The position numbers and the translations under genes were made by a program. The notes under the pieces are model-generated. The model was not told where the DNA came from, did not search any database, and saw only the letters and a list, made by a program, of their open reading frames with translations. From Gillisia sp. (GTDB lineage: Bacteria > Bacteroidota > Bacteroidia > Flavobacteriales > Flavobacteriaceae), in contig JAGXIL010000039.1 of NCBI GenBank assembly GCA_024635655.1, forward strand, positions 86,849 through 150,848: a stretch of 64,000 nt of DNA, in the 5' to 3' direction. The number at the start of each line of letters is the position of its first letter. Position 1 is the stretch's first letter. Shown here piece by piece: positions 17,669 to 20,228 of the stretch.

Positions 17669-18269
17669 CTACCTATAAAGCTCATTCAAATAATTCCTGT
17701 CACCATCAACCCTCTGGTAAATGATCTCAAAATTAACCTCTTCATCCGTCGAGCCGGTTATTGAATTTTCATCTAAAGTTCCTTTGGCTAATTTAATTCC
17801 GCCGATTACCGAGTCTCTAAATCCAATTCTAAGACTGTCTTTGGCGGTATAATAAGATCCAAAATACAGGGAATCGTTTATGGATAAAACCGCCTGGTTA
17901 TTATACTCCAGGAACATCATGGGATGGTTGCCCAGAGTTCCTCTGGAAATCTCTATTGCTTCATTATTGACAAGTATACTTTTGATCTCATAAGTGCCCA
18001 CCACCTCATCATTGACAGTAGACCTAAGCGAATAAGCAAAGATGGAATAGGAAACAGATAACACCAGAACGAAAAGGAAAGGCAAATACACCTTGTAGCT
18101 CCTGAGTTTTTCAATGGGTGCAGCGCGGTTAAACTTCCCTCCCATTTTAATAAAAAACCTGTAAAGATCTTTATGATAACCGGAAAGCAGAACCAGCGTT
18201 ATGGCGAAATCTATCAGTACGTGATCCAGCGCAAAGTTATACCGTTCAAAAGCAAGGATTATTTGTTCT
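17669..18269 (-). pseudogene. C-terminal part of DoxX-like/membrane + lipocalin-like protein disrupted by IS110
   Basis: frame is open upstream of the track ATG (IEQIILAFERYNFALDHVLIDFAITLVLLSGYHKDLYRFFIKMGGKF...) up to the IS end at 18269. Confidence 0.85.
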
Positions 18270-18285
18270 ATTTTTTATATTTGTT

Positions 18286-19689
18286 TTAGGCAGGAGGTAA
18301 GCCCGTATTTTCTTTAATTAATAAAGATTGGGACGCTTCCTGTTTTTTTCTTTTTTGAGCTGCTATACGAGATATTGGTGCCTCGGTACCACCTTCACTA
18401 TATCTTTCTGCTCTTCGTTTTTTGGTCAGCTTTAGTTCCTGGATTTTTGCCTCGGTTTCTTCTCTTTTCTGGTTAGCAGTCTCTATGTTTTGAATGTCAA
18501 TTCTGGGATCATAGGTGGTTTGATTTTTTAGAACTCCGTAGATAATTCTTAGCCTTTTATGCATTACGACTCCCATGGCTTGATAATGATTCATTCCTTT
18601 AGCTCTAAACCTGACATATAGCTGTTTTGTATTCTCATCAGATCGTATGGCTGATAGGCAGGACATATAAAGTGCAGCCCTGATGTCCGGTCGTCCTTTT
18701 TTACTCATTCTGCTCCCCCAGGTACCGTCTCCGCTTTGTTTAAATGTAGGGTGCACACCGAAGAAAGAACATAGCTGTTTGGCTGAGTCGAACCTGTTAA
18801 TATCCTCTATTTCCAAAAGTATCCTAATAGCCGTACTGGGACCTATTCCTTTGACCGTACAGAGTAATTTCACTTGATCATGATGCTCGTATCGCTTGAT
18901 AAGAATACTGTCCTCCTTTTCGATCAGTTTCTTTTTGTGAATTATCTCTCTTGCGGTTTCACTGATGAGATGTTTTATTTGCTCACTAACAGCTTGATTG
19001 TTGTGCTGGACTTTTCTTAAGATTGCCTGTGCTTTATTCGAACCTATGCCCTGGATACGAACCAGCATTTTTTCTGATGCCCTGCTAACTTGCTTTGCAC
19101 TGGGATATTTCACAAGCATCTCCAAAAGCCAATTAGGCATTCCATTTCTACAATAGACTAAAGTTTCACTAAAATACTGATAGAGTAATTTCTCCAGCTG
19201 ATTATTAAGTTGTACTCTCTGCTTGGTGAGCATACGCTTAAAAGTAAGGGTCTGTCTGGCTTCTTTAAAGGTATTGTCTAGTTTAACTGATTTGTCTTTG
19301 TAAATTATTTTTTCAGGAAAGGCAATTAAATAAACTGCTATGTTTTCGGCGCTTACAGCATCAGTAATGGTTCTTTTTAGAGCCGCTTCACTTACAGATT
19401 TAACACCTTTGGGGTTTAACCTGGCAATCTTTATATTTTGTTCTACTGCCAAATCCTGGAGGTGACCAAACCAGTTGTTTTCATAACCTCCCGTACTTTC
19501 CACACCGCAGAACAACTCATTTAATCCTAAAGAGAACCAGTGGTCGATAATCTGTGAAAGTTTTAATCTTCCTGCTTTGTTATCGTTTAATTGAAAAGGA
19601 TCCTCAAGAACCTGTTTGTCCTGATCCAGTAAAAGAAAATCTGCATATCCTTTACTTACGTCAATACCTAAAAAAGCTTTGTTTTTCAT
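18286..19689 (-). CDS. IS110-family transposase (DEDD RuvC-like + Transposase_20)
   Basis: AFLGIDVSKGYADF, GVESTGGYENNW, ITDAVSAENIAVY; C-term LLCTVKGIGPSTAIRILLEI...LCSFFGVHPTFKQSGDGTWGSRMSKKGRPDIRAALY. Confidence 0.96.
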   Translation of the reverse strand: MKNKAFLGIDVSKGYADFLLLDQDKQVLEDPFQLNDNKAGRLKLSQIIDHWFSLGLNELFCGVESTGGYENNWFGHLQDLAVEQNIKIARLNPKGVKSVSEAALKRTITDAVSAENIAVYLIAFPEKIIYKDKSVKLDNTFKEARQTLTFKRMLTKQRVQLNNQLEKLLYQYFSETLVYCRNGMPNWLLEMLVKYPSAKQVSRASEKMLVRIQGIGSNKAQAILRKVQHNNQAVSEQIKHLISETAREIIHKKKLIEKEDSILIKRYEHHDQVKLLCTVKGIGPSTAIRILLEIEDINRFDSAKQLCSFFGVHPTFKQSGDGTWGSRMSKKGRPDIRAALYMSCLSAIRSDENTKQLYVRFRAKGMNHYQAMGVVMHKRLRIIYGVLKNQTTYDPRIDIQNIETANQKREETEAKIQELKLTKKRRAERYSEGGTEAPISRIAAQKRKKQEASQSLLIKENTGLPPA

Positions 19690-19869
19690 TGATCATTTAA
19701 AATTAATATTAATCAAGCCCCGTTCATGCTTATGGTAAAATACGTTATCGTGTAACAAGTTATACCTCGAACTCTACTTGATGGTGAGGTGACTTTGCGG
19801 CAGTATCCTGTACTATGCAAGATCAAACCCTCTTACCACCAAATTGAGCAATTTTTTGATTAATAAAAA
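19690..19869 (-). ncRNA. putative IS110 bridge (seek) RNA region in transposase 5' leader
   Basis: non-coding LE of length typical for IS110 bRNA; hairpins at 19791-19824 (GATCTTGC...GCAAAGTC) and 19764-19790 (ACCTC...GAGGT), possible internal-loop stem 19734-19766. Confidence 0.55.
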
Positions 19870-20228
19870 ATAGAAAAACAAACATATAAGAAGATATCAA
19901 ACTCTATGTTCAGGATAATGAGGTTTGCACAAACTCCCAGGGAGATCAGTAGGGCGATGAGCCGGGTTCGTTTGAAAACAACAATTGCCCCTATAAGAAA
20001 TTCGGCTAAACTTATGAAAATATTATAGTTGTAGGACCTTCCGAAAAAAGACCACATGTGCTGGTATTTTGAGATCTCTGCCAAAGGAAGATAGGATTCA
20101 TAATGCATCACCCTGAACTGCATATGGAGCAGCTTTGGTATGGCAAAGCATATCATCTTTGCAGACAAATAGTAGATCAGTAAATATTTGAAAACAACAA
20201 GAATGTTCTTAAGAGTGATATTTTTCAA
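19870..20228 (-). pseudogene. N-terminal part of the same DoxX-like membrane protein
   Basis: 119 aa of TM protein (LIYYLSAKMICFAIPKLLHMQF...EFLIGAIVVFKRTRLIALLISLGVCANLIILNIEFDIFLYVCFS) ending at IS junction. Confidence 0.85.

What the first reader, a model, noticed from the sequence alone, without database searches (positions are those of the whole stretch)
19690..19871. Candidate bridge/seek RNA in the IS110 left end
Established: IS110-subgroup elements express a structured non-coding RNA from the non-coding end upstream of the transposase that specifies donor and target DNA. Seen: here the 5' leader is ~180 nt while the 3' flank is ~15 nt (IS110-type, not IS1111-type). On the transcribed strand it contains a 5' stem-loop GATCTTGC-ATAGTACAGGATACTGCC-GCAAAGTC, then ACCTC-(17 nt)-GAGGT, then a stem with an internal loop GGTA[TAACTT]GTTA-CACGA-TAAC[GTATTT]TACC. 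The order stem-loop followed by two loops is what a bridge RNA would show. The last two helices share 2-3 nt, and I could not assign target/donor guides convincingly.
Basis: partly seen in the sequence, partly recalled or inferred. Interest (0 to 1): 0.72.

Follow-up and report, generated by a model that had tools for sequence, protein, structure and literature searches.

The report
Bridge RNA of a flavobacterial IS110
A jumping gene in this flavobacterium carries, in the non-coding DNA before its recombinase gene, what is very probably a guide ("bridge") RNA that pairs both with the element's own joined ends and with the site it jumped into; a sister copy in another genus has changed its guide together with its insertion site.

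Summary
A 92% identical copy in Salegentibacter sp. 24 and an uninterrupted homolog of the split host gene place the ends: CT|18237..19888|CT on the - strand, LE 199 nt, RE 49 nt (not 15), one CT core kept. With correct ends the guides appear: RTG CGCAAAG pairs with CT-TTGCG in the window, and the sister's CCGCUGAG pairs with its own target CT-CAGTGG at the same RNA column; a joint scan reached this score in 0 of 20,000 random site pairs. LDG GGUAUAACU equals RE plus core (0 of 7,032 random CT sites). The RE-LE junction rebuilds a Bacteroidota promoter, TTG-N20-TATGTTTG (2 of 7,035). LTG pairing is gapped; RDG is short. Four other Bacteroidia IS110s show guide-like matches. A deviation: the fourth catalytic Asp of DEDD, essential in IS621, is Ser113 here; it is Ser, Cys or Ala in three other relatives, and the gene is under purifying selection. 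The RNA is a new member of a known kind; the recombinase is a variant.

The parts
18235..19890 (-). whole IS110-type element with both CT cores (1652 bp between cores)
   Evidence: homology to L002 stops at CT on both sides; removing the insert and one CT restores the host reading frame, and an intact homolog in G030 aligns without a gap across the junction
19889..19890 (-). left core dinucleotide CT
18235..18236 (-). right core dinucleotide CT
19690..19888 (-). left end (LE), 199 nt, encodes the bridge RNA
18237..18285 (-). right end (RE), 49 nt
18286..19689 (-). IS110 recombinase, 467 aa; D10, E64, D110, Ser113 in place of the fourth Asp, nucleophile Ser319; C-terminal extension of about 70 aa
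19879..19886 (-). -7 box TATGTTTG (TAnnTTTG) just inside the LE
   Evidence: consensus from PMC9723704
18253..18255 (-). TTG (-33 element) in the RE, 20 nt before the -7 box in the circular RE-LE junction
19829..19832 (-). target-binding loop, closing stem 5' side GAGG
   Evidence: pair probability 0.97-0.99 in window and L002
19786..19789 (-). target-binding loop, closing stem 3' side CCTC
19819..19828 (-). left target guide GTTTGATCTT (pairs, with a 2-nt bulge, to GTTTGATATCTT left of the core)
   Evidence: gapped match, p 0.006 in window and 0.008 in L002
19802..19814 (-). hairpin of the target-binding loop, AGTA-CAGGA-TACT
19793..19799 (-). right target guide CGCAAAG, pairs with CT-TTGCG
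19777..19782 (-). donor-binding loop, closing stem 5' side ATCAAG
   Evidence: fold of the loop alone
19712..19717 (-). donor-binding loop, closing stem 3' side CTTGAT
   Evidence: fold of the loop alone
19757..19766 (-). left donor guide GGTATAACTT, identical to RE terminus GGTATAA + core CT + T
19744..19756 (-). hairpin of the donor-binding loop, GTTA-CACGA-TAAC
19729..19733 (-). right donor guide ATAAG, complementary to core CT + LE start TAT
   Evidence: weak alone, p 0.05
18223..18234 (-). right half of the target (RT, TTGCG...)
19891..19905 (-). left half of the target (LT, ...GTTTGATATCTT)
19891..20228 (-). 5' part of the interrupted host gene
17669..18234 (-). 3' part of the interrupted host gene

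Best explanation
The 199-nt left end encodes a bridge RNA. The element leaves the chromosome as a circle, which joins RE to LE and builds a flavobacterial promoter (TTG in RE, TATGTTTG in LE) across the CT core; the RNA is transcribed from there into the leader. Its first loop (closed by GAGG/CCTC) carries a left guide (GUUUGAUCUU) and a right guide (CGCAAAG) for the chromosomal target; its second loop carries a left donor guide (GGUAUAACU) and a right donor guide (AUAAG) for the RE-CT-LE junction of the circle. The IS110 recombinase bound to this RNA recombines donor and target at CT, leaving one CT on each side. Shown here from sequence: ends, core, empty site, guide matches, RTG-target covariation, donor guides, promoter match. 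Inferred from IS621 and ISEc21: transcription, RNA binding, circle, catalysis.
For: Precise ends from a 92% identical copy at another site and from an intact homolog of the host gene (54% identity, no gap at the junction). RTG-target pairing in both copies at one homologous RNA column; the sister changed exactly the RNA bases (AA to TG) facing the changed target bases (TT to CA); fixed-column p 0.007 and 0.0006; whole-leader joint scan 0 of 20,000; swapped pairs score lower (11 against 14.5). LTG matches, gapped, p 0.006 and 0.008, swapped lower. LDG 9 nt ending exactly at the core, 0 of 7,032 random CT sites; RDG 5 nt, p 0.05. Junction promoter 2 of 7,035 random CT sites, matching the sigma-A -7 consensus of flavobacteria (PMC9723704). 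Guide changes exceed the leader's average: 4 of 10 substitutions in 20 of 195 aligned nt, p 0.011. Four other Bacteroidia IS110s gave guide-like matches, mostly at comparable leader positions. Closing stem and hairpins have high pair probability in both copies.
Against: Only two close copies turned up in about 1,500 genome searches (overlapping sets), so helix covariation could not be tested. Leader-wide RT matches taken singly are unremarkable (p 0.048 and 0.031); the strength lies in the shared column and the joint scan. The left target guide pairs only with a 2-nt bulge, in opposite directions in the two copies, its register to the core differs by one base, and its core positions do not pair. 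RDG is short. A separate 5' stem-loop as in IS621 is not clear: AAATT/AATTT has probability 0.0 in the full fold. The overall fold is only about 2 sd better than shuffles. No Rfam match. No expression data.
Confidence: 0.92

Rival explanations
1. The leader is a cis-acting structured 5' UTR of the recombinase mRNA (translation control or attenuation), not a guide RNA.
For: It lies directly upstream of the start codon and is structured; small RNAs have been proposed to modulate expression in ISPpu9 (cited in PMC11208160).
Against: It predicts no relation between leader bases and the insertion site, yet RTG and target change together, and a 9-nt copy of the distant right end lies in the second loop.
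Confidence: 0.04
2. Target matches are chance: the two insertions are random and the leader merely drifted.
For: Single-copy leader-wide RT scores are common (p 0.03-0.05); only two insertions are known.
Against: Joint scan 0 of 20,000; both best matches fall in the same RNA column, in the loop position expected from IS621; LTG and LDG agree independently.
Confidence: 0.03
3. The bridge RNA is present but the window copy is a dead or dying element (Ser113 replaces an essential Asp), so the RNA is a relic. This concerns activity and is compatible with the RNA being a bridge RNA.
For: D105 of IS621, aligned to Ser113, is essential there (PMC11208158); single copy in its genome.
Against: The sister copy and the 41% identical relative L004 also have Ser; Cys and Ala occur in other lineages, one with four near-identical copies; dN/dS 0.19 between the two copies; ORF intact in both; both copies sit at different, guide-matched sites.
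Confidence: 0.15

Closest known systems
IS621 bridge RNA system (IS110 group), Durrant et al. 2024 PMC11208160 and companion structure paper PMC11208158
   Same: Long LE with the RNA, short RE, CT core kept once, two internal loops in the order target then donor, left guides read as top strand and right guides as its complement, core included in LDG, RTG and RDG, promoter rebuilt at the RE-LE junction, first loop variable and second conserved
   Different: Flavobacterial sigma-A type promoter instead of sigma-70; left target guide pairs with a bulge and without the core; fourth DEDD Asp is Ser; recombinase 467 aa with a C-terminal extension (IS621 protein 326 aa); no clear separate 5' stem-loop; sequence similarity detected only in the Tnp domain
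ISEc21 seekRNA (IS110 family), PMC11187229
   Same: Upstream non-coding region holds the RNA, promoter made at the circle junction, short target matches suffice, natural reprogramming among relatives
   Different: Different host phylum and target; donor guides were not part of that description in the passages read here
IS1111-attC elements (ISKpn4, ISPst6)
   Same: Insertion into repeats of the integron cassette kind; the sister L002 sits in an attC-like palindromic repeat
   Different: Those carry the RNA downstream of the recombinase and have subterminal inverted repeats; this element carries it upstream

Membership tests
IS110 family recombinase | RuvC-like DEDD domain PF01548 and Tnp domain PF02371 above curated cut-offs | tested here: met
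   52.5 bits (cut-off 29) and 82.4 bits (cut-off 21.3); NF033542 173.9 bits against 140
IS110 family recombinase | all four acidic residues D-E-D-D | tested here: not met
   D10, E64, D110 present; fourth position Ser113, aligned to the Asp of ISCro4 and to Asp of most relatives; also Ser in L002 and L004, Cys in L064, Ala in L007. Homology to the family is nevertheless clear, so it is filed as a variant.
IS110 family recombinase | conserved nucleophilic Ser in the Tnp domain (S241 of IS621) | tested here: met
   KQSG, Ser319
IS110 group (not IS1111) | LE much longer than RE, guide RNA in LE | tested here: met
   LE 199 nt, RE 49 nt, guides in LE
bridge RNA | target-binding loop whose guides match the insertion site | tested here: met
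   RTG strong and covarying; LTG gapped
bridge RNA | donor-binding loop whose guides match the RE-core-LE junction | tested here: met
   LDG 9-10 nt, RDG 5 nt; RDG alone is weak
bridge RNA | structure conserved with compensatory changes among homologs | not testable with these tools
   only two close copies (92% identical) were found; no compensatory pair is possible to score
bridge RNA | promoter rebuilt at the circle junction | tested here: met
   sequence match TTG-N20-TATGTTTG, 2 of 7,035 random CT sites; activity not tested
bridge RNA | transcribed, bound by the recombinase, needed for recombination | not testable with these tools
   needs RNA-seq, binding and recombination assays

The most novel reading that the evidence does not exclude
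The element is a working bridge recombinase that has lost the fourth catalytic aspartate of the DEDD motif (Ser113), and such losses have arisen more than once in Bacteroidota IS110s, so the composite active site found essential in IS621 can be built with three acidic residues or with an unidentified substitute.
Probability: 0.5. Interest if true: 0.6.

Novelty: new variant of a known kind. Interest (0 to 1): 0.5.

Why it matters
It gives a flavobacterial bridge RNA with assigned guides, target, donor junction and predicted promoter, ready for an assay in Bacteroidota, a phylum not mentioned in the two main bridge/seek RNA papers. The pair of copies shows a guide and its target changing together in nature. 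The missing fourth Asp makes a defining claim about IS110 catalysis directly testable.

Tried and rejected
A local 5' hairpin AAATT-GCTC-AATTT that I first took for the IS621-like 5' stem-loop: probability 0.0 in the full fold, so left unassigned. Handshake guides (bases after RTG and RDG): only partly consistent with the IS621 scheme, not used as evidence. Searches for more close copies: family, order, class, genus, a second family draw, viral contigs and plasmids gave no third close copy. L004 is a 41% identical relative that lacks most of the Tnp domain. AlphaFold model from the two sequences: mean pLDDT 42.6, not usable. Rfam: no hit.

Full report
Where the element ends. The recombinase ORF is 18286-19689 on the - strand. 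A search found one copy in its own genome and one close relative elsewhere: L002 in Salegentibacter sp. 24, 90% identical in protein and 92% in DNA over the element. Read in the element's direction, similarity begins at CT-TATATGTTTG and stops at GGTATAA-CT; the flanks beyond differ. In the window the two flanks are two halves of one host gene. Joined on a single CT they give one open frame (...NIEFDI-FFALDHV...), and an intact homolog in genome G030 (54% identity over 300 residues) runs through the joint without a gap. So the insertion left one CT on each side; the element between cores is 18237-19888, LE 199 nt, RE 49 nt.

Guides. IS621 bridge RNAs have a target loop and a donor loop, each with a left guide that reads like the top strand and a right guide that is its complement, with the CT core included (PMC11208160, PMC11208158). 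With the right ends the same layout appears. Right target guide: CGCAAAG against CT-TTGCG in the window, CCGCUGAG against CT-CAGTGG in L002 (one G:U). Both are the best matches of each whole leader and fall in the same alignment column. Taken alone each has p of 0.03-0.05; taken jointly over all homologous columns none of 20,000 random pairs of CT sites reached the score, and swapping the two targets lowers it from 14.5 to 11. Left target guide: GTTTGATCTT against GTTTGATATCTT, and GTTCGAGCTTG against GTTCGCTTG; p 0.006 and 0.008, each needing a 2-nt bulge. This part is weaker: the register to the core differs by one base between copies and the core itself is not paired. Left donor guide: GGTATAACTT equals the RE end, core and next base; none of 7,032 random CT sites matched as well in that loop. 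Right donor guide: ATAAG against CT-TAT, p 0.05 alone. The donor guides and the donor ends are unchanged between the two copies, while 4 of 10 leader substitutions fall in 20 nt of target guides (p 0.011), as expected from the conserved second and variable first loop of IS621.

Structure. GAGG/CCTC closes the target loop (probability 0.97-0.99), AGTA-CAGGA-TACT and GTTA-CACGA-TAAC are the two central hairpins, and the donor loop folded alone closes with ATCAAG/CTTGAT and, inside it, a GTTC/GAAC helix. Energies are about 2 sd below shuffles. With two close copies there is no covariation test of the helices.

Promoter. In the circle, RE and LE join as TTG-CTTTTGAACGGTATAA-CT-TA-TATGTTTG. TAnnTTTG is the -7 box of the flavobacterial sigma-A (PMC9723704). 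The spacing range of 17-23 nt for TTG is from my own knowledge of Bacteroidota promoters. Two of 7,035 random CT sites have this arrangement. As a comparison, four other multi-copy Bacteroidia IS110s (G1230, G443, G1073, G796) were delimited from their copies. Three of them have TTG at 17-20 nt before an exact or one-off TAnnTTTG across the junction; G796 has the -7 box but no TTG at that spacing. Guide-like matches turn up in their leaders, mostly at comparable positions (left target guide near nt 70-95; left donor guide ending with the core in G1230 and G443), but not every guide was identified in every element. Those matches were read by eye and not scored against chance.

Recombinase. Three of the four DEDD acids are present (D10, E64, D110), the fourth is Ser113. 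In IS621 mutating this residue (D105) abolished recombination (PMC11208158). L002 and the truncated relative L004 also have Ser; L064 (four near-identical genomic copies) has Cys and L007 has Ala, on a separate branch of the tree. dN/dS between window and L002 is 0.049/0.255, so the gene was kept functional while the two copies diverged and moved. I read this as a variant active site, unproven.

Targets. L002 lies in one of about nine copies of a 75-bp palindromic repeat that separates single ORFs, an array like integron gene cassettes. Its RNA's implied right target CT-CAGCGG resembles the repeat. IS1111 elements that target attC sites are known (Post and Hall 2009, cited in PMC11208160; PMC11187229); this one is of the other group. 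The window copy instead sits in a protein gene.

Verdict. Bridge RNA: very likely. Class: IS110-group bridge RNA, with a recombinase that departs from the family's defining motif at one residue. No expression or activity has been shown.

Noticed in passing
window 18286-19689; L002 2501-3904; L004; L007; L064: Fourth Asp of the DEDD motif is Ser, Ser, Ser, Ala and Cys respectively in these IS110 recombinases.
   Followed up: partly
L073 (Salegentibacter sp. 24 contig C40) and L074 (C32): Array of single ORFs each followed by a 75-bp palindromic attC-like repeat, near an mnmE-like gene; L002's element is inserted in one repeat. No integron integrase was identified; a phage-type tyrosine recombinase lies nearby.
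   Followed up: partly
L004 (genome G963): A relative with RuvC domain and C-terminal extension (APISRI motif) but most of the Tnp domain missing: a decayed or internally deleted member, which shows that the extension belongs to the wider lineage.
   Followed up: partly
L063 (own genome, contig C51:47500-52000): A second, distant IS110-family ORF of 327 aa with a standard NDxxDA motif.
   Followed up: no
L073 7401-8455: Another IS110-family gene, split into two frames, lies beside one repeat of the same cassette array.
   Followed up: no
window 18232-18239: The right end-target joint happens to create a second TAnnTTTG box, TAACTTTG, reading outward into the 3' half of the split host gene.
   Followed up: no
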